Shown in pieces: positions 2,900 through 59,934 of a stretch of 64,000 bases of DNA. Under the pieces are notes generated by a model, which saw nothing but the letters and a program-made list of their open reading frames with translations, had not been told where the DNA came from and did no database searches. Numbering within the stretch: the stretch's first letter is position 1; every line of letters starts with the position of its first letter. Both the position numbers and the translations under genes were made by a program. Source of the stretch: Lachnospiraceae bacterium (GTDB lineage: Bacteria; Bacillota; Clostridia; Lachnospirales; Lachnospiraceae); assembly GCA_022845895.1 (NCBI GenBank), contig AP025573.1, positions 2,514,501-2,578,500 of the forward strand. The letters are read 5' to 3'.

Positions 2900-3997
2900 A
2901 TGGATAAAAAACCTGAATTTCATGGAAGTGATATTGAACAGATCTCGCAGTACTACCACATACCGCAGGAGGATATCGTAAGTTTCGGCGCTAATGTCAA
3001 TCCGCTCGGCCTCTCTGAGCATGTGAAGGAGCAGCTTGCATCCAACCTGGATGTAATCACCCGGTATCCTGACCGGAATTATGCCCGGCTCAGGGACACC
3101 ATCGGCGCCTATTGTCATGCAGACCCGGAGCACATCGTAGTCGGGAACGGTTCTACCGAGCTGATTTCTCTTCTCATCAGCGGTCTGCGACCGAAAAAGG
3201 CGCTCGTCATAGGCCCTACCTACTCTGAATATGCCAGGGAGCTCTCTCTCGTCGGCGGTACGCTGGAATATTACAATCTGAGGGAAGAAAAGGACTTTGC
3301 CCTCGACGTGCCGGACCTTCTGGACGCCCTTGCCCCGGACACCGGGCTGCTTGTCATCTGCAATCCGAACAACCCTACCTCCTCGGCACTTGCCTGCGCG
3401 CAGCTTGAGGAGATCCTCCGGTTCTGCAGGGAGAGAGGCATCTTCGTCATGATTGACGAGACATATGCCGAGTTTGCTCCGGAGCCGGAAGCCATCACCG
3501 CTATCGGGCTCGTACCGAAGTACGACAACTTTATGGTCATCCGCGGGGTGTCCAAATATTTTGCAGCCCCCGGCCTTCGTTTCGGATATGGTATCACGAG
3601 CAGCAGGGCGTTCCTCGACGTCCTGCACCGGCACCAGAATCCGTGGAGCTTGAGCAGCATCGGCGCCTTTGCCGGCAGGCTCATGCTCGAAGATGACACG
3701 TATATCCAAAAGACGTGGAACCTGATAGATTCCGAACGTACCCGTCTGTTCAACGAGCTCCGTACATGGAAGGGCGTGAAAACCTACCGCCCGTATGCCA
3801 ACTTTATCCTCGTCAGGCTCCTTAGGGAAGGGCTCACTTCTTCTGACGCATTCGAGCATGCAATCCGTCAGGGTCTCATGATACGCGACTGTTCCTCATT
3901 CCGGAGCCTGGACGGAGAGTATATCCGGTTCTGCATCATGGATCCGGAAGACAACGACAGGCTGATGGCCTGCCTTCGAGGTTATTTGGAGGTTTAG
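2900..3997 (+). CDS. PLP-dependent aminotransferase, HisC/CobD-like (fold type I)
   Basis: 365-residue aspartate-aminotransferase-fold enzyme. Visible landmarks are CNPNNPT (154-160), MIDETY with the PLP-pyridine Asp at 186, the Schiff-base Lys 219 in GVSKYFAAPGLRFGYG, and Arg 227 of GLRFGY for substrate carboxylate or phosphate. Length and motif order fit histidinol-phosphate aminotransferase or L-threonine-O-3-phosphate decarboxylase (CobD), which are hard to tell apart by eye. No his or cobalamin genes are adjacent, so the substrate is undetermined. The ATG follows AGGAAG. The gene is monocistronic and its 3' end abuts the composite repeat that begins just after the stop codon. Confidence 0.85.
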   Translation: MDKKPEFHGSDIEQISQYYHIPQEDIVSFGANVNPLGLSEHVKEQLASNLDVITRYPDRNYARLRDTIGAYCHADPEHIVVGNGSTELISLLISGLRPKKALVIGPTYSEYARELSLVGGTLEYYNLREEKDFALDVPDLLDALAPDTGLLVICNPNNPTSSALACAQLEEILRFCRERGIFVMIDETYAEFAPEPEAITAIGLVPKYDNFMVIRGVSKYFAAPGLRFGYGITSSRAFLDVLHRHQNPWSLSSIGAFAGRLMLEDDTYIQKTWNLIDSERTRLFNELRTWKGVKTYRPYANFILVRLLREGLTSSDAFEHAIRQGLMIRDCSSFRSLDGEYIRFCIMDPEDNDRLMACLRGYLEV

Positions 3998-4008
3998 TAA
4001 ACTAGGGC

Positions 4009-4191
4009 GCCGATGGGGAGGTATGGGGCAGATGCTCCGATGCGTCCGGGAACTGCGACTATCACACAGATTCCTAAGCCTGCGGGGTGTTCGCCGATAG
4101 CGGCTCTCACCCCACAAGCCAAGGAATCTGGCGAGGATTCTCCGTCCCTTCCGCTTATACCTTCGCATCTGTCCCATACCTCCCCATCGGC
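4009..4191 (-). ncRNA. Palindromic structured unit, type I, copy A
   Basis: Near-perfect terminal inverted repeat of ~26 bp (GGGGAGGTATGGG at one end, its complement at the other), a middle helix of ~23 bp (CAGATTCCT...GGGGTG with CACCCC...AGGAATCTG) and an apical GCCG/CGGC stem, separated by internal loops. Written on the minus strand, the loops carry TAAGCGGAAG, CGGAGAATCCT and CGGACGCATCGGAGCA. These are shared with the type II unit although all helix sequences differ. That pattern of conserved loops and compensating helices suggests a folded RNA, but expression and orientation are inferred. Confidence 0.5.
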
Positions 4192-4313
4192 TATCTACTT
4201 TACTGGCATGGGCGGGGGCGGTTGTGTAACGCTACTGGCTGATGGAAGGGATTTGGTTGTGTCAGCATAGTGATAAAGGGCTAAGCCCTTTGCCGAAAAG
4301 AAATTCTAATATG

Positions 4314-4382
4314 AAGAAGAGCCGGAATCAGGTACGAGGATGTTTATGAGATGACATCCCTTGCCTGATTCCGGCTCTTCTT
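4314..4382. repeat. Long hairpin between the paired units, copy A
   Basis: Perfect 19-bp inverted repeat: AAGAAGAGCCGGAATCAGG at 4314-4332 and its complement at 4364-4382, with an inner GGATGT/ACATCC stem around a TTATGAGATG loop. The counterpart in copy B (19453-19521) keeps the fold with a few changes. It lies between convergent genes and could terminate transcription from both sides, although no long T-run follows it. Confidence 0.65.
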
Positions 4383-4599
4383 GCAGCAACGGCGTGCTCG
4401 CCTCGCTGCAATTGCTTAACAACGAACCTATTCGCCAGCCTGATTCATCTGGACCAGCAAAACTCTTATCATTCATCTGCTCTTTGTGTTATTCACATTA
4501 AGCTTGTTATATTTTATCATTCATCTCACGCAGCCAGCGGCCATCCGCGGGCCAGTAACGTCACACAGCCATCCTCGCCCTTGTTATGTGAAGTAGATA

Positions 4600-4781
4600 G
4601 CGGGCGGGGAGCCGGGTGGGAGATGCGCAGGTGTAAGCGGAAGAGGCGGAGAATCCTTTCCGTAGCCCTTATCCTGCGGGATGCAAGCCGCAATCGGCGC
4701 GCATTCCGCAGGGTTAGGGATACGTGAAATAGTCGGAGCCTCGGACGCATCGGAGCAGATGCCACCCGGCTCCCAGTCCGC
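4600..4781 (+). ncRNA. Palindromic structured unit, type II, copy A
   Basis: Same architecture as the type I unit with different helix sequences: basal GGGAGCCGGGTGG/CCACCCGGCTCCC, a middle helix pairing GTAGCCCTTATCCTGCGG with CCGCAGGGTTAGGGATAC, and an apical GCCG-CAAT-CGGC hairpin. Loop sequences TAAGCGGAAG, CGGAGAATCCT and CGGACGCATCGGAGCA match type I. It is preceded by AAGTAGATAG, as is the type I unit when read in its own orientation. Confidence 0.5.
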
Positions 4782-4798
4782 AGCCACTTTACTTAAAC

Positions 4799-5143
4799 TT
4801 ACAGTTTCAGAATCAATGCCACGAAGGAAAGGTCTTCGGTCCCTGTATTCTTCAGGCCATGTCCGTCCCCGTCCTTACAGAATGTCACGTCTCCCGCTTC
4901 TACCGGTACCGCCTTGCCATTGTCGTCATACATCCCTCTTCCGCTTAATATATAATACGTCTCTGTCTCTCCGTGATGCTCATGATATCCGAGCTCACAG
5001 TTAGGCTTTAAAGTCACACGGCTGAACATCTTGCAGTGCTCTCCGAGCTGTTCCTGGCTAATCAGCGCCTCTTTCATGATAAATCCGGCGCCGCCGTTGA
5101 CATGTTCCACCGTAACTATTTCCCTTTCTCCTGTTTTTGTCAT
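4799..5143 (-). CDS. Small single-domain cupin protein
   Basis: 114-residue cupin. The metal-binding motif 1 is visible as GYHEHHGETETYYILSGRG and motif 2 as GDVTFCKDGDGHGLKNTG, which together give the His/Glu set typical of metal-dependent cupins. An upstream in-frame start would add 24 residues, but the ATG at 5143 has an excellent AAAGGAGG site. The stop codon lies just outside composite repeat A. Proteins of this size are isomerases, dioxygenases or sugar-binding regulators, and nothing nearby fixes the substrate. Confidence 0.8.
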   Translation of the reverse strand: MTKTGEREIVTVEHVNGGAGFIMKEALISQEQLGEHCKMFSRVTLKPNCELGYHEHHGETETYYILSGRGMYDDNGKAVPVEAGDVTFCKDGDGHGLKNTGTEDLSFVALILKL

Positions 5144-5310
5144 TCTGCTTCCTCCTTTATTCTCGCGAAGGCAACGAGCCAAGTGGGGGCAACCCCACAG
5201 CTCGCTGCACTGCAACTTTTATGCCCCGTTGCCTGCAGCGGGGTCTTTGACTATGTAATAGCTTGATAGATTCATTGTAATATAGTGTATTCAAAAATTC
5301 AAGTGTGTGA

Positions 5311-5366
5311 AATTTTGAAAGGGGTCAGACCCCTCTGTGCAGAGGGGTCTGACCCCTTTCGAAATT
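5311..5366. repeat. 28-bp-stem palindrome containing two GGGGTCWGACCCC cores
   Basis: A perfect 21-bp stem (5317-5337 with 5340-5360) and a 2-base loop, extended outward by AATTT/AAATT with one mismatch. Each arm contains its own small palindrome, GGGGTCAGACCCC. It sits between the permease stop codon (5370) and the cupin promoter region. A terminator for the permease operon or a dispersed intergenic palindrome are both possible; there is no strong T-run on the minus strand. Confidence 0.7.
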
Positions 5367-14626: not shown

Positions 14627-14651
14627 GTCAGATATTACTTACTTCATTACA
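14627..14651. repeat. 25-bp direct repeat flanking the IS (left copy)
   Basis: GTCAGATATTACTTACTTCA followed by TTACA lies directly against the left IS end and recurs exactly at 15719-15743 against the right end. It is most simply a target-site duplication, and its perfection argues for recent insertion. Confidence 0.8.
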
Positions 14652-15718
14652 TGTAGGTTTGTCAAACATTTGTTACAGTGACCGTAAATAATCCTTTAAG
14701 ACCTCATTCGGTGTTTTCCAGCCTAGAGGGCGCATGGGGAAATTGTTATAGTCCCTACGGTTATACACCTTCAGCTGCGCAGCAAAGTCCTCAAAGGAAT
14801 AGAACAGATGGGTCGCATAAAAACGCTCATTGTCTTTCCGATGGCTGCGCTCTACCTTCCCGTTGTGACGAGGGGTAAAGGGACGGATGACCTTGTGCTT
14901 TATCCCATGTGTTTCCAAGCGCTTTTGGAAGAGGGTCGGCTTGTCCCGGTGAGAAGTAAAGCGGTTGGTGAACTCCGATCCATTATCCGTCTGGATGCAC
15001 GCGATGGAGAGGGGGAACGCTTTTACGAGGTGTTCCACAAACTGCGCGGAAGAATAGGTGCTGTGTTCCTCAAAGGCTTCCACGAAGCGCCATCTGGAAT
15101 ACTCGTCAATGGCAGTGTACTGGAAGAACTGCTTCCCGATGACCCTGCTGTTTTTGAGGCAGGCGGAAGGGACGAATTTCACATCCACCTGAATACGCTG
15201 GCCGGGATACTCCATCTGCTCATAGGGCTTGGGGATGTACTTTGGATTGGGCGGATGGACGGCCATGATGCCCCGTTTTTTGAGGAAGCGGTAGAGTCCG
15301 GTGATGGAGCGGGAATAGCCGCGCTGCCTGAGCTTGACCCAGAAGACGACCAGTCCGGCATCCGGGTTGCGGCGGCGCATATCCGAGATAAGCTTAGCCT
15401 CCTGAGGGGTATGCTGGCTGGGGTGATGGTGAGGCCGTCTGGAGCGGTCACGCAGGGAATCCATGGAGCCGTCAAAGCGGCGTTTCCAGCGGTAGATATA
15501 CTGCCGGTTGGTCTTGAATTTGACAGCGGCCTTGGTGACGCCATGCTTCTCAGCGTATCGGATCAGGGATAGACGGTATCTCATATCTTGTGTTATACTA
15601 GCCATAGCAGGGAACTCCTTTTTTGTTTGTTTTTGTTGTGGTGACTAAAATATAACACAAAAGGCAGTATCTCTGCTTTTTAAATATTCAGTTGTAACAC
15701 ATGTATTGTAATCCTACA
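14652..15718. mobile_element. IS481-family insertion sequence (1067 bp)
   Basis: One transposase gene lies between imperfect terminal inverted repeats of about 26 bp: left end TGTAGGTTTGTC, right end (reverse complement) TGTAGGATTACA, both continuing to a shared ACATnTGTTACA. It is flanked by 25-bp direct repeats. The element sits in the divergent intergenic region between carA and the CarD-like gene, leaving both core promoters intact. The element and its gene are complete, so it may be active. Confidence 0.85.
14673..15605 (-). CDS. IS481-family DDE transposase
   Basis: 310 residues. An N-terminal helix-turn-helix (about 12-55, with NRQYIYRWKRRF) is followed by an rve integrase-core domain. 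The catalytic triad is Asp 141 (IQVDVKF), Asp 207 (IQTDNGSEF) and Glu 252 (HNGKVERSHRKDNERF), and the YNRRDYNNFPMRPLG C-terminal motif is present. No frameshift or stop interrupts it. It occupies nearly the whole insertion sequence. Confidence 0.93.
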   Translation of the reverse strand: MASITQDMRYRLSLIRYAEKHGVTKAAVKFKTNRQYIYRWKRRFDGSMDSLRDRSRRPHHHPSQHTPQEAKLISDMRRRNPDAGLVVFWVKLRQRGYSRSITGLYRFLKKRGIMAVHPPNPKYIPKPYEQMEYPGQRIQVDVKFVPSACLKNSRVIGKQFFQYTAIDEYSRWRFVEAFEEHSTYSSAQFVEHLVKAFPLSIACIQTDNGSEFTNRFTSHRDKPTLFQKRLETHGIKHKVIRPFTPRHNGKVERSHRKDNERFYATHLFYSFEDFAAQLKVYNRRDYNNFPMRPLGWKTPNEVLKDYLRSL

Positions 15719-17765: not shown

Positions 17766-19031
17766 ATGAATGAAATGAACCCGAATCTGCCTGATACCCC
17801 TGATAAAGGACGGCTTAAGATTAGTATCACATCCGAAATTACGGCTTTTCCCGTCAATGACGCTACTATATCCATCTCATATACCGGTGTGCCCGACAGC
17901 CAGCTGGAACAGCTGAATACAGATGCCTCTGGCCAGACGGATACTGTCGAGCTGGCTGCTCCGCCTTTGGAATATAGCCTCGATCCAGCTATTGAGGAAC
18001 AGCCTTATTCAGAGTATACGCTCCAGGTCGAAGCGCCTGGTTTTGAACCGATCAGCATTGCCGGCACAGAGATTCTCCCTGACGTCACGGCACTGCAGAA
18101 CATACAGATGCGTCCGCTGGCTGACCCTGAAAGCAATGAAAATGTGTTTGTAATACCTGCACACACATTATATGGCGTATATCCGCCCAAAATACCGGAA
18201 GATGAGATAAAGCCTATGGATGAAACGGGCGAAATCGTACTGAGCCGTGTCGTCGTACCCGAATATATCGTCGTCCACGATGGAAGTCCGAGAGATTCTA
18301 CTGCCCAGAACTATTATGTAAAATACAGAGACTATATTAAAAACGTAGCTTCCAGCGAGATATATGCCACGTGGCCTGAAGATACAATCCGGGCTAATAT
18401 TCTGGCCATCATGTCATTTACCTTGAACCGAGTATATACCGAATGGTACCGGAATCAGGGATATGACTTTACGATTACATCTTCCACAGCTTTTGACCAC
18501 AAATGGATACCAGAACGGAATTTCTTTGACACTATCTCCGCTATAGTAGATGAGTTATTTGCCAGCTATCTTTCTCGTCCTAATGTTCGCCAGCCGATAC
18601 TTACCCAATACTGTGACGGCCGCCGGGTACAGTGTCCGAACTGGATGACCCAGTGGGGAAGCAAGGCGCTCGGCGACCAGGGGTACTCCCCTATCGAGAT
18701 TCTTCGCTATTATTACGGGGAAGACATGTACATCAACACGGCGGAGGCCATCTCCGGCATACCTTCTTCCTGGCCCGGATATATACTGGAAGTCGGCTCT
18801 TCCGGTGATAAGGTCCGTCAGATGCAGGAACAGCTCAATGTCATAGCAGGCGCCTATCCGGCCATTCCGAAGATAACTGCAGATGGCGTATATGGTCCGG
18901 CCACCGAGGCCACTGTCCGCAAGTTCCAGTCCGTATTCGGCCTGCCCGAGACCGGAACCGTAGATTACAGGACGTGGTATAAGATATCCGAGATATACGT
19001 AGGCGTCTCAAGAATCGCGGAATTGCAGTAA
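17766..19031 (+). CDS. SpoIID-like domain plus peptidoglycan-binding domain protein
   Basis: 421 residues in three parts. Residues ~15-117 resemble a carboxypeptidase-regulatory-like beta sandwich. The middle (~165-330) begins RDYIKNVASSEIYATWPEDTI with later ILAIMSFTLNR, closely resembling the SpoIID/LytB motif, where a Glu (here Glu 198) is catalytic for glycan cleavage. Residues ~345-412 form a PG_binding_1 domain (GSSGDKVRQMQEQL; ITADGVYGPATEATVRKFQ). No signal peptide is apparent, so action inside a forming spore or non-classical export are options. The SpoIID relationship is my reading, not a search result. Confidence 0.7.
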   Translation: MNEMNPNLPDTPDKGRLKISITSEITAFPVNDATISISYTGVPDSQLEQLNTDASGQTDTVELAAPPLEYSLDPAIEEQPYSEYTLQVEAPGFEPISIAGTEILPDVTALQNIQMRPLADPESNENVFVIPAHTLYGVYPPKIPEDEIKPMDETGEIVLSRVVVPEYIVVHDGSPRDSTAQNYYVKYRDYIKNVASSEIYATWPEDTIRANILAIMSFTLNRVYTEWYRNQGYDFTITSSTAFDHKWIPERNFFDTISAIVDELFASYLSRPNVRQPILTQYCDGRRVQCPNWMTQWGSKALGDQGYSPIEILRYYYGEDMYINTAEAISGIPSSWPGYILEVGSSGDKVRQMQEQLNVIAGAYPAIPKITADGVYGPATEATVRKFQSVFGLPETGTVDYRTWYKISEIYVGVSRIAELQ

Positions 19032-19054
19032 TTGGGGATTTAGTGAAACAGACC

Positions 19055-19236
19055 GCGGACAGGGAGCCGGGTGGCATCTGCTCCGATGCGTACGAGGCTC
19101 CGACTAGCCCACGGAATCCTAACTTTGCGGCAGAGTCGCTGATAGCAGCTCCTCTCCCGCAAACCAAGGATTCCGGGACGGATTCTCCGCCTCTCCCGCT
19201 TGCACCTGCGCATCTCCCACCCGGCTCCCCGCCCGC
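19055..19236 (-). ncRNA. Palindromic structured unit, type II, copy B
   Basis: Basal helix GGGAGCCGGGTGG/CCACCCGGCTCCC as in copy A. The middle helix has a different sequence (CGGAATCCTAACTTTGCGG paired with CGCAAACCAAGGATTCCG), and the apical loop is also changed. Loop motifs AGCGGGAG-type and CGGATGC-type remain recognisable. The element is oriented opposite to its copy-A homologue. Confidence 0.5.
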
Positions 19237-19452
19237 TATCTACTTCACTTAACAAGGGCGAGTGCGGCTGTGTGACGTTACTGGCCAGCGGATGGCCGCT
19301 GGCTGCGTAAGTTGAGTGATAAAATATCGCAAGCTTAATGTGAATAACACAAAGAGCAGATGAATGATAAGAGTTTTGTTCGTCCAGATGAATCAGGCTG
19401 GCGAATTTGTTCGTTGTTAACATTTGCGGCGAGGCGTGCACGCCGTTGCTGC

Positions 19453-19521
19453 AAGAAGAGCCGGAACCAGGCAGGGGATGTCATCTCATACACATCCCCG
19501 TACCTGATTCAGGCTCTTCTT
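19453..19521. repeat. Long hairpin between the paired units, copy B
   Basis: AAGAAGAGCCGGAACCAGG (19453-19471) pairs with CCTGATTCAGGCTCTTCTT (19503-19521) with two non-Watson-Crick positions, around an inner GGGGATGT/ACATCCCC stem. It corresponds to the perfect hairpin at 4314-4382. Confidence 0.65.
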
Positions 19522-19649
19522 CATTATATTATTACCAGCCAAGTTTTTCAGCTTGCTTTGTCCTTTATCACTATGTTTACACAGTCAAAGTCCTTCCATC
19601 AGCAAACCACGTCACACAGCCGCCCTCGCCCGTGCCAGTAAAGTAGATA

Positions 19650-19832
19650 GCCGCTGGGGAGGTATGGGACAGATGCGAAGGTCTAAGCGGAAGGGACGGA
19701 GAATCCTCACCAGATTCCTTGGCTTGTGGGGTGAGAGCCGCCATCGGCGAACACCCCACAGGCTTAGGAATCTGTGTGATAGTCGCAGTTCCCGGACGCA
19801 TCGGAGCATCTGCCCCATACCTCCCCAGCGGC
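19650..19832 (+). ncRNA. Palindromic structured unit, type I, copy B
   Basis: Ends GCCGCTGGGGAGGTATGG and its complement form the basal helix; here GCT/AGC replaces the GAT/ATC pair of copy A, a compensatory change. The middle helix CAGATTCCTTGG...GGGGTG with CACCCC...AGGAATCTG and the GCCG/CGGC apex are kept. The loops carry TAAGCGGAAG, CGGAGAATCCT and CGGACGCATCGGAGCA. Confidence 0.5.
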
Positions 19833-19964
19833 GTTTTAGTTTACTTAAACTCACATTTTATTAACAATATCTTCAAATTTTAAACACATATTTCTCACAT
19901 TTACCTCTTATACTAATAATTGTTCAGAAGAACAAACTTAAAATTCTTTTTCATAACTTTTCCT

Positions 19965-38264: not shown

Positions 38265-39011
38265 CTATATATTCACTTCACAACGGAACACATTTCTGTC
38301 ACCCCTGAATTTGGCAATAGAATACTCGATCGGTTTCCCGTCTGCCGTATAAGTTACTGATGTCGTGAGCTGAATCGGATCCCCTTCCTTGATGCCGAGC
38401 AGTTCTGCCTCGCTTTCCTCGGCGGAGATAGCTTCCAGCTCCCTGACTGCTTTCACCGGAGTCGTCTCTGCATTTTTATCCAGGAACTCATACAACCCTG
38501 TTTTGTTCATGTCCATATCCAGCATGCCTCTGCAGCATATAGGAAGATATGCATCAGCCAGGACATTCGGCTCATCATTCACAAACCGGAGTCTGCGCAG
38601 ATGAATCACATCCTCGCCTTCCATCAGCTGAAGCATCTTGCTCACGAGATCATTCGCCTTTATGACCGACAGCTCCAGCACCTTCGTCGTCGTCTTGACA
38701 TTCTGCGACTGCAGCAGATTGTGAGAAGCCCGGATAACATTTGTAAAATCTTGTATTACTCTCTTTTCAGCAACGAAAGTGCCTTTACTTTTGATACGGT
38801 AAAGCTGCCCTTCCATCACCAGTTCCATAATCGCCTGTCTGGTTGTCGTCCTGCTGATTCCAAATATATCACTTAGCTCCAGTTCTGTAGGAATCATATC
38901 GCCCGGTTTCAGTTTGCCCTCCCTTATCATATCCAGTATAATCTTCTTTAACTGGTAGTACATCGGCACCGGTGTGTTTTTATCGATACTCTCTTTTGAA
39001 AACTGATTCAT
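38265..39011 (-). CDS. GntR/HutC-family transcription regulator (UTRA domain), copy 1
   Basis: 248 residues. The winged helix occupies ~10-80 (YQLKKIILDMIREGKLKPGD; FGISRTTTRQAIMELVMEGQ), followed by a UTRA effector domain (VIHLRRLRFVNDEPNVLADAYLP; PIEYSIAKFRGDRNVFRCEV) that binds small sugars or phosphosugars. It is divergent from a paralogous regulator at 39228 with about 50% similar residues by eye. Together they probably control the catabolic locus through the AT-rich palindromes. Which protein binds which site is unknown. Confidence 0.9.
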   Translation of the reverse strand: MNQFSKESIDKNTPVPMYYQLKKIILDMIREGKLKPGDMIPTELELSDIFGISRTTTRQAIMELVMEGQLYRIKSKGTFVAEKRVIQDFTNVIRASHNLLQSQNVKTTTKVLELSVIKANDLVSKMLQLMEGEDVIHLRRLRFVNDEPNVLADAYLPICCRGMLDMDMNKTGLYEFLDKNAETTPVKAVRELEAISAEESEAELLGIKEGDPIQLTTSVTYTADGKPIEYSIAKFRGDRNVFRCEVNI

Positions 39012-39227: not shown

Positions 39228-39986
39228 ATGTTGACCAATCCATCGAAAATTGACAAATCGACACCTGTACCACTTTATTTCCAGCTGAAACAGCTGATTA
39301 TGGAAGAAATCAAGAATGGCAGCTATAAGGTAGGCGGAATGATACCAACTGAAAAAAAGCTGAGCGACACCTTTTTAATCAGCCGCACCACCGTGCGCCA
39401 GGCTATCACTGAGCTGGTGCAGGAAGGATGGCTCTACCGCATCAAAAGTAAAGGTACCTTCGTCTCACAGCCTAAGATAAGCCAGGACTTCATCAAAAAG
39501 CTGGAAAGCTTTAACGACCAGATACTCAGGGCAGGCATGTCGCCCAGTACTGAAGTGCTGAAGCTCGAAGTGCAGAAGGCGACCGCGAAAGTAGCTGCGA
39601 GCCTTGACTTGAAGGATAAGGAATCCGTCATATACCTCCACCGCAAACGGCTTGCAAACGGAGAGCCGATTGTCACGATTGAGACATGCCTGCCTTATGA
39701 GGACTGCAGCTTTATCCTGTCACATGATTTGGAAAAGGAGCTGCTGTACAGTATACTGAATGAGCGGAAAGAGACGAGCGTCTTCCGCGTCAACAGAATC
39801 GTAGAAGCCGTGGAAGCAGATTCCCGCGATGAGCAATATCTGGATATAGAAAGAGGAAAACCAATCCAGCATTTCACTTCTACCGGCTATAATGCCTATG
39901 GCAAACCGATAGAGTATTCCCTGGCCAGATACCGGGGCGACCGCAGCAGCTTTGAGATTACGGTCTTTCCCGACAATTCACAGTAG
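39228..39986 (+). CDS. GntR/HutC-family transcription regulator (UTRA domain), copy 2
   Basis: 252 residues. The winged helix (YFQLKQLIMEEIKNGSYKVG; SRTTVRQAITELVQEGWLYR) and UTRA domain (VIYLHRKRLANGEPIVTIET; PIEYSLARYRGDRSSFEITV) are both intact. The recognition helix is almost the same as in the divergent paralogue (SRTTTRQAIMELVMEGQLYR), so the two may share operators while sensing different ligands. The start has a GGAG site. It ends three bases from the convergent diguanylate cyclase gene. Confidence 0.9.
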   Translation: MLTNPSKIDKSTPVPLYFQLKQLIMEEIKNGSYKVGGMIPTEKKLSDTFLISRTTVRQAITELVQEGWLYRIKSKGTFVSQPKISQDFIKKLESFNDQILRAGMSPSTEVLKLEVQKATAKVAASLDLKDKESVIYLHRKRLANGEPIVTIETCLPYEDCSFILSHDLEKELLYSILNERKETSVFRVNRIVEAVEADSRDEQYLDIERGKPIQHFTSTGYNAYGKPIEYSLARYRGDRSSFEITVFPDNSQ

Positions 39987-59813: not shown

Positions 59814-59905
59814 TCCAGAGTATCGTCCGAACTTAATTCCTTTGCCTGAGAGTTTCGGTCATCCCTTTCCCCTTCGGCGCTATCACACAGATAGACTCTC
59901 TTAAA
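59814..59905 (-). ncRNA. Glycine riboswitch (single aptamer with ghost element)
   Basis: Minus-strand landmarks match the glycine aptamer: P1 GAGAGT with ACTCTC, P2 CTATC/GATAG, the core GCGCCGAAGGGG and CTCTCAGGCAAAGGA, then GGACGATACTCTGG at the 3' side. Only one full aptamer is visible, and the 3' ACTCTGG part resembles the ghost aptamer of singlet riboswitches. It controls the gcv operon, most probably as an on-switch for glycine excess. Confidence 0.92.
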
Positions 59906-59934
59906 TCCATCACCCGATATATGAAACTACTTTG

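What the first reader, a model, noticed from the sequence alone, without database searches (positions are those of the whole stretch)
4009..4781. Two classes of ~183-nt palindromic units share loop sequences but have different, still-paired helices
Types I and II align only in the presumed internal loops (TAAGCGGAAG, CGGAGAATCCT, ATAGTCG, CGGACGCATCGGAGCA) and the GCCG-loop-CGGC apex. The basal helix (GGTATGG/CCATACC against GCCGGGTGG/CCACCCGGC) and the middle helix (CAGATTCCT... against GTAGCCCTT...) differ in sequence but pair in both. Compensating helices with fixed loops are a hallmark of a functional folded RNA, or of a DNA cruciform recognised by a protein. Four units are present in the window, and I do not recognise them as a known RNA class.
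Basis: partly seen in the sequence, partly recalled or inferred. Interest (0 to 1): 0.8.

Follow-up and report, generated by a model that had tools for sequence, protein, structure and literature searches.

The report
Paired giant hairpins replacing gene terminators
Some gut bacteria carry dozens of copies of an 820-base non-coding element made of two inverted giant hairpins, sitting directly behind the stop codons of genes where a transcription terminator would normally be; its folded shape is kept while its sequence changes, and no known family that was tested matches it.

Summary
The four units are two copies (3984-4806, 19030-19858) of one ~825-nt non-coding element: an inverted pair of ~180-nt folded units around a central hairpin, with terminal repeats. 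The own genome has 27 large copies plus fragments. A covariance model built only from four OTHER Lachnospiraceae genera recovers all four window units at 152-162 bits. In those genera 52 of 57 pairs show compensatory changes and 93.6% of cells pair, against 38-44% for slid controls. No Rfam match.

New here: elements abut stop codons. 38 of 52 ends have a sense frame ending at the terminal repeat (background 9%), 27 of 32 in one reading frame. At 3 of 8 sites checked, a related species has a plain terminator instead; at 4 it has a different giant-hairpin element. Pairs combine two unit types with similar loops but different helices; elements flip end-for-end at fixed sites. G-U is not significantly above A-C in any unit set, pointing to DNA rather than one RNA strand. 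Best reading: REPIN-like, formerly mobile DNA that took over terminator sites. RNA function and a mutational origin of covariation remain open.

The parts
3984..4806 (.). Copy A of the element, terminal repeat to terminal repeat
   Evidence: Terminal motif AANTGKGRGTTTA (2 and 1 mismatches here); other genomic copies share these ends
3984..3996 (+). Left terminal repeat of copy A; the stop TAG (3995-3997) of the upstream gene overlaps it
4010..4190 (+). Unit of type I (outer stem reaches about 3996-4204)
   Evidence: R1 195.2 bits; R2, built without Extibacter, 151.6 bits at 4011-4189
4313..4382 (.). Central hairpin (GAAGAAGAGCCGGAATCAGG ... CCTGATTCCGGCTCTTCTT)
   Evidence: sequence; related short matches in G002
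4601..4780 (-). Unit of type II, inverted relative to the type I unit (outer stem about 4588-4797)
   Evidence: R1 209.5 bits; R2 160.6 bits
4794..4806 (-). Right terminal repeat of copy A; holds the stop TAA (4799-4801) of the convergent gene
2900..3997 (+). Upstream flanking gene (365 aa, aminotransferase-like by eye, not searched), ends in the terminal repeat
   Evidence: C-terminus compared with G002 by eye
4799..5215 (-). Convergent flanking gene (138 aa, cupin-like by eye, not searched), ends in the terminal repeat
19030..19858 (.). Copy B of the element
   Evidence: terminal motifs at both ends (0 and 1 mismatch; L018)
19056..19235 (+). Unit of type III in copy B (third middle-helix type, apex GCTGATAGCAGC)
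   Evidence: R1 204.7, R2 161.7 bits; type (L018)
19454..19522 (.). Central hairpin of copy B
   Evidence: sequence
19651..19831 (-). Unit of type I in copy B
   Evidence: R1 197.2 bits; R2 156.0 bits at 19652-19830
17766..19031 (+). Gene whose stop TAA (19029-19031) abuts copy B (421 aa, peptidoglycan-binding-like by eye, not searched)

Best explanation
A family of non-coding dispersed DNA elements, each an inverted pair of ~180-nt folded units around a central hairpin with terminal repeats. Shown: the fold is conserved across five genera while the helix sequences are replaced; loops are more conserved than helices; most element ends lie at the stop codon of a gene, and at three sites a relative without the element has a plain terminator there; the two-unit elements examined mix two helix types; element sites are largely shared among three species while the element flips end-for-end and switches type. 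Inferred: the folded strand (hairpin or cruciform DNA) is recognised through its internal loops by a protein acting in trans that once spread the elements (working like a very large REPIN); they now persist as terminators or insulators at gene ends, homogenised by recombination between copies. The two arms stay different in helix sequence because an inverted pair of identical units would be a long near-perfect palindrome.
For: Copies and terminal repeats: 27 large copies; the exact terminal motif is found 30 times in the genome, 15 forward and 15 reverse, reversed-pattern control 0; compared by position, 29 coincide with element ends and one lies 1.5 kb left of L005, apparently an element split by an insertion. 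Structure; cross-genus recovery of all four window units. No significant G-U excess. Stop-codon anchoring: with background 9.1% for the same range; in other genera 24 of 27 units examined (of 29 fetched) have a sense gene ending 6-29 nt upstream. Terminator replacement: of 8 G000 sites compared with G002, 3 have a plain hairpin terminator between the two stops (by eye), 4 a different giant-hairpin element, 1 no synteny. Two unit types per element, flips (7 of 20 comparisons) and type II/III switches (9 of 20); in G181 3 of 3 pairs examined are of unlike units (loop identity 0.73-0.77, helix 0.55-0.57).
Against: No mobilising protein found: no unit near 22 of the 32 Y1-transposase loci fetched. 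No target-site duplication seen by eye. Little recent mobility: of 39 element rows of the two sister species 36 have at least one flank matching a G000 element locus, 26 both. Copy A has no terminator-like site by the simple scan, so termination is inferred from position alone. 14 of the 52 ends have no such gene end of 100 codons or more. Sense orientation to the abutting gene would also fit an RNA function.
Confidence: 0.5

Rival explanations
1. A structured RNA module of 3' untranslated regions: each gene's mRNA reads the first unit in sense directly after the stop codon, and the fold stabilises the 3' end, ends transcription or affects the terminating ribosome, as REPs within 15 nt of a stop codon are reported to do in E. 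coli.
For: Units lie in sense to the gene they abut, 24 of 27 examined in other genera, including loci of G257 and G378 where only one unit was found; start at the stop codon; terminator replaced at 3 sites; T-rich central hairpin in G349 by eye. REPs within 15 nt of a stop stall ribosomes (passage in PMC12306157). In G002 units G-U is slightly above A-C (21 and 13, not significant).
Against: No significant G-U excess in the sense strand; in Extibacter A-C exceeds G-U (97 G-U, 145 A-C). Promoter-like sites at chance level around copy A. Elements flip end-for-end at fixed sites, though an inverted pair tolerates this at DNA and RNA level alike.
Confidence: 0.27
2. An inert old repeat: compensating helices come from template switching between the arms during replication, without selection on the fold; loops look conserved only because switching acts on the arms.
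For: Template switching can create multiple compensatory changes and inverted loops (PMC8794818, passages). Mostly Watson-Crick pairs and no significant G-U excess. A segment GCAGATGC / GCATCTGC is flipped between copies.
Against: In other genera unpaired columns are more conserved than paired ones (0.78 and 0.64); neutral loops should drift at least as fast. Homologous units in five genera. Stop-codon anchoring in one reading frame and retention at shared sites are not expected of inert DNA.
Confidence: 0.17
3. A known family: a REPIN/BIME, a transposon end, or an Rfam RNA not recognised by the reader.
For: Inverted paired palindromes in extragenic space are REPIN-like (PMC3116915, passages).
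Against: No Rfam match to the element at gathering threshold; below threshold microRNA-type models and one snoRNA model, of which the best, MIR1858 at 76.4 bits in a G002 element, is far under its gathering score of 137. Units 180 nt against 20-40 bp for REPs (PMC3733652, abstract in listing); no Y1 transposase association in 22 loci; no match in plasmids and phages, no exact pattern match in viral contigs.
Confidence: 0.05

Closest known systems
REPINs / REP-BIME elements (RAYT-associated)
   Same: Non-coding, dispersed, inverted pairs of palindromic units in extragenic space
   Different: Units ~180 nt with conserved internal loops instead of 20-40 bp; tens of copies; pair made of two helix types; starts at stop codons; no RAYT nearby in 22 loci searched. 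A RAYT-like gene of this genome is flanked by a different repeat (GGGGTCAGACCCC)
MITEs
   Same: Terminal repeats, no conserved coding frame, many copies
   Different: No target duplication seen, no parent transposase found, complex fold conserved between genera
Bidirectional intrinsic terminators between convergent genes
   Same: Same place: from stop codon to stop codon; a plain terminator is the alternative state at 3 sites in G002
   Different: ~825 nt instead of ~50-100 nt, no T-run hairpin by the scan in copy A
Rfam structured RNAs
   Same: Covarying helices with conserved loops
   Different: No family matches; no significant G-U excess

Membership tests
REP / REPIN (RAYT system) | 20-40 bp palindromic repeat unit | tested here: not met
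   Model length 176-180 positions with 57 pairs
REP / REPIN (RAYT system) | Two units as an inverted pair | tested here: met
   Two-unit elements are (+ ... -); at least six inverted pairs in G181
REP / REPIN (RAYT system) | Associated Y1 (RAYT) transposase gene flanked by the repeat | tested here: not met
   0 unit hits in 22 of the 32 Y1 loci; L128 is flanked by another repeat
REP / REPIN (RAYT system) | GTAG-type tetranucleotide at the foot of the hairpin | not tested
   No formal test made
MITE | Terminal inverted repeats | tested here: met
MITE | Target-site duplication | tested here: inconclusive
   None apparent in the end listing (by eye); insertions may be too old
MITE | Parent transposon with the same ends | tested here: inconclusive
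   29 of 30 exact terminal motifs are ends of known elements; the thirtieth belongs to an element (L005) split by a ~1.5 kb insertion that was not analysed; diverged ends were not searched
Rfam RNA family | Match above gathering score | tested here: not met
   Window: only a glycine riboswitch at 59824-59913
Structured RNA | Covariation beyond control | tested here: met
   52 of 57 pairs; slid controls 20-27 pairs
Structured RNA | Strand-specific pairing (G-U tolerated, A-C not) | tested here: not met
   G-U/A-C 23/45, 17/18, 97/145; G002 units 21/13, p 0.23
Structured RNA | Transcribed | not testable with these tools
   No RNA-seq
Intrinsic terminator | GC hairpin followed by T-run | tested here: not met
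   Copy A: the only terminator-like site in 3900-4900 lies at 3974-3956, outside the element. The scan also reports none in L182, where I see a T-run hairpin by eye, so it is not very sensitive; copy B was not scanned

The most novel reading that the evidence does not exclude
A new class of gene-end element: a large, loop-conserved, hetero-paired hairpin module that displaces ordinary terminators exactly at stop codons in several Lachnospiraceae genera and is read, as folded DNA, by a dedicated and so far unknown protein; the rule that the two arms must differ in helix sequence while sharing loops would be a new solution to keeping a giant inverted repeat stable.
Probability: 0.3. Interest if true: 0.87.

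Novelty: new variant of a known kind. Interest (0 to 1): 0.72.

Why it matters
Dozens of loci in one gut-bacterial genome appear to use this element in place of their terminators, so it bears on how these bacteria (Extibacter muris makes secondary bile acids, PMC7781625, abstract in listing) end genes. It is also a natural experiment on covariation: either a folded DNA is under selection across genera, or template switching can mimic RNA-like covariation at large scale. Both are testable, and either answer matters for how structured RNAs are called from sequence.

Tried and rejected
Known RNA: Rfam at gathering and at E-value level gave, apart from the riboswitch elsewhere, only sub-threshold matches to microRNA-type models and one snoRNA model; rejected. 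Protein-coding: inside frames of 80-186 codons sit at changing positions and strands, and some copies have none (41 loci). RAYT/Y1 mobiliser: four Y1 loci in the genome, 28 in seven others; 22 of these 32 searched with R2, no unit. General gene-end motif: rejected, 29 of 30 exact terminal motifs coincide with element ends and the last is next to one (matched by position, by eye). Mobile in phages or plasmids: no match; viral contigs: no exact match of two patterns. RNA-strand G-U test: first run on a structure predicted from one strand, which biases towards G-U; G002 units then gave 50 G-U and 13 A-C; on pairs predicted on both strands 21 and 13. The H-type element of G002 as member of the same unit family: R1 weak (31.3 bits, E 0.0014, and 27.1 bits), R2 none; inconclusive.

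Rows dropped: A1 had 33 units; 4 (L090, L063, L042, L109) were left out of A2 (an insertion, a stretch of N, two cut units). The 27 copies cover 653-864 bases of the query; L019, L021 and L025 are incomplete. One search used 52 of their 54 ends (one end each of L019 and L021 is missing); the frame count uses the 32 ends with at most 2 motif mismatches and a frame of 100 codons or more. Its first background (7.1%) used a narrower range; for the same range it is 9.1%. One search used 27 of the 29 other-genera loci (L193, L205 left out). The 28 locus pairs were picked and by eye; 20 have two units on both sides. The 39 rows include some loci twice. In some searches only 6 candidates per genome were scored, so their misses are weak. 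The tree ignores pairing and is only indicative; one of 26 G181 units (L180) falls with G257. L124 was fetched for G002 comparison but not searched there. My notebook entries are looser than this report ('~50 units', 'every intact element'); the counts here come from the calls.

Full report
WHAT IS THERE. Copy A spans 3984-4806 and copy B 19030-19858. In each, a ~180-nt folded unit with an outer stem of about 209 nt is followed by a linker, a central hairpin, a second linker and a second unit on the opposite strand. The parts of copies A and B match as inverted repeats over 382, 298 and 113 nt at 86-91%. In the own genome (G000, 4,158,096 bases, one contig) the search lists 27 copies covering 653-864 bases of the query at 80-100% identity, plus fragments. 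The element is also in G001 and G003 of the same genus; G002 of that genus has only short matches to the central hairpin, and 0 of 57 genomes outside the genus match by DNA similarity. No match in 72,556 plasmids and 50,697 phage records; no exact match of two patterns in the viral contigs.

IS THE FOLD REAL. Unit types I and II (II on the other strand) fold alike; 123 distinct unit sequences give a joint consensus fold of -150.5 kcal/mol. A third helix type, III, shares the basal helix of II but has another middle helix and apex. On 29 units, 57 pairs, 96.0% of cells pair and 26 pairs have two-sided changes; slid controls give 40-51% and 2-6 pairs. These are few evolutionary events, so I looked further. 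Model R1 searched in 397 genomes of the family hit 6: G000, G001 and four other genera, G181, G257, G349, G378, the latter at 76-126 bits. In 12 units from these four genera 52 of 57 pairs have two-sided changes, 93.6% of cells pair, covariation score 0.775; slid controls give 38-44%, 20-27 pairs and 0.10-0.13. That alignment was fitted to R1's structure and leans towards it. The independent check is R2, built from these 12 units only: it finds all four window units at 151.6-161.7 bits, on the expected strands, and none of them on the other strand at E up to 1. With 32 units (30 distinct, most from G181) the result stands (52 of 57 pairs, slid 26-33). Unpaired columns are more conserved (mean 0.78) than paired ones (0.64) across these genera.

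DISTRIBUTION. R2 hit 2 of 392 genomes of the order sample (G000, G181) and 1 of 391 of the class sample (G000); only six candidates per genome were scored. Scored more deeply, G181 has 45 matches above 100 bits, among them at least six inverted pairs (+ ... -) with starts 413-628 nt apart; G257 has four units, G349 two places, G378 one, and G002 none. The family is patchy and so far seen only in this bacterial family.

WHERE IT SITS. In G000 I took 52 ends of the 27 copies. 38 have an open frame of 100 codons or more, reading towards the element, that ends within -40..+25 of the terminal motif; 9.1% of window positions have such an end in that range. Of the 32 clean ends, 27 are in one reading frame (expected one third; p 4e-9) and 19 have TAA placed as T|AA of the terminal repeat; stops are 25 TAA, 4 TAG, 3 TGA. 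Frames without a stop close to the repeat could be under-counted by this range. In other genera 24 of 27 units examined have a gene on the same strand ending 6-29 nt upstream. The exact terminal motif occurs 30 times in the genome, 15 on each strand, none for the reversed control. Compared by position, 29 are element ends and one lies 1.5 kb from the element in L005, which seems split by an insertion.

WHAT IT REPLACES. Eight G000 sites were compared with G002, seven through searches and one (L024, against L087) by flanks seen by eye. At copy A, L043 and L014, G002 has a short gap with a plain hairpin terminator between the two stops, by eye. At copy B, L003, L020 and L024 it has another giant-hairpin element; one site (L025) has lost synteny. 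The C-termini shift by only a few codons at copy A and L043 (by eye). So at these sites the element fills the place of the terminator from stop to stop. This is the basis for inferring that it ends transcription; the simple scan finds no terminator-like site in copy A itself, while in G349 the central hairpin carries a T-run by eye that the scan does not report.

HOW IT EVOLVES. Element sites are largely shared among the three Extibacter-group species: of 39 element rows of the two sister species 36 have at least one flank, and 26 both flanks, matching a G000 element locus; L065, L106 and one end piece of L070 have none. Yet in 20 comparisons with two units on both sides 7 are flipped end-for-end and 9 switch between type II and III. 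In these elements one side is type I and the other type II or III, always (+ ... -); two Dorea copies (L063, L064) have an extra type II unit. G181 shows the same pattern with its own types: in three pairs loop identity is 0.73-0.77, helix identity 0.55-0.57. In an indicative tree the Extibacter types form one clade (support 0.90) and 25 of 26 G181 units another (1.0), so the split into unlike arms arose, or was re-homogenised, separately. I infer that identical arms would form a long palindrome; a 246-bp interrupted palindrome causes inverted chromosome duplications in E. coli lacking SbcCD and RecA (PMC3315005, abstract).

DNA OR RNA. On pairs predicted on both strands, G-U and A-C cells are 23 and 45 (Extibacter, 29 units), 17 and 18 (other genera), 21 and 13 (G002 units), 97 and 145 (123 units). 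Only the A-C excess in Extibacter reaches nominal significance (p 0.01 and 0.002), the G002 difference does not (p 0.23), and related copies are not independent. An RNA of the sense strand should tolerate G-U and not A-C; this is not seen. It fits pairing kept at DNA level or copied between arms. Template switching can make clusters of compensatory changes and inverted loops (PMC8794818, passages), and the GCAGATGC/GCATCTGC flip between copies looks like one. It does not explain loop conservation across genera or the stop-codon rule. I therefore prefer a folded DNA recognised by a protein, REPIN-like in working (PMC3116915, passages), now resident as terminator; but the sense orientation and stop-codon position keep an RNA role at about one in four. 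REPs within 15 nt of a stop codon are reported to stall ribosomes (PMC12306157, passage), and stable stem-loops in many bacteria favour convergent gaps and the 50 bp after stop codons (PMC1590033, passages), which makes the place, if not the element, familiar.

MEMBERSHIP. It is not a REP/REPIN by size or by RAYT linkage, not an Rfam family, and shows no target duplication by eye. My literature searches listed no paper whose title or abstract start describes it; PMC8040213 (passages) reports 250 palindromic candidate RNAs in human microbiomes, 230 of them terminator-like, but names neither Dorea nor hylemonae in its main text, and its supplements could not be read. 'Not in print' is thus limited to these searches of an open-licence library.

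LIMITS. G002 is unnamed; I take it to be a C. hylemonae relative by recall only. Gene names given 'by eye' were not searched. The G002 element shares the end motif, the central hairpin (80-93% over short matches) and sites, but its units do not match R2; whether it is the same family is open. Statements about typical G-U rates in RNAs rest on recall; no known RNA was run as control.

Noticed in passing
window 5323-5360; L128; L123:6633-6710: A second, unrelated palindromic repeat, GGGGTCAGACCCC...GGGGTCTGACCCC, flanks a Y1 (RAYT-like) transposase gene in L128 and has dozens of matches in G002.
   Followed up: partly
L078, L083-L089, L131, L136 (G002): G002 has giant-hairpin elements of other sequence at the same kind of sites; one 740-nt piece folds at -470.8 kcal/mol, and in nine copies 49 of 118 predicted pairs have two-sided changes.
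   Followed up: partly
L070 (G001); L005 and L146 (G000): Elements are themselves interrupted: pieces of a transposase-like gene (by eye) in L070, and a ~1.5 kb insertion near the left end of the element in L005.
   Followed up: no
L063, L064, L066, L067 (G001): Elements of 1.25-1.46 kb with internal partial duplications of unit, centre and linker.
   Followed up: no
window 19858-19930, minus strand: The right end of copy B does not abut a large gene; a 12-codon frame (MCLKFEDIVNKM) after a possible ribosome site runs up to the element and is conserved in part in G002 (by eye).
   Followed up: no
window 14651-15718: Insertion-sequence-like transposase gene (310 aa, by eye) with 95-99% identical copies in G001 and G003.
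   Followed up: no
window 59824-59913 (-): Glycine riboswitch, 61.4 bits.
   Followed up: no
window 38773-38903 and 39333-39463: 131-nt inverted arms, 70% complementary; by eye the starts of two divergent GntR-like regulator genes.
   Followed up: partly
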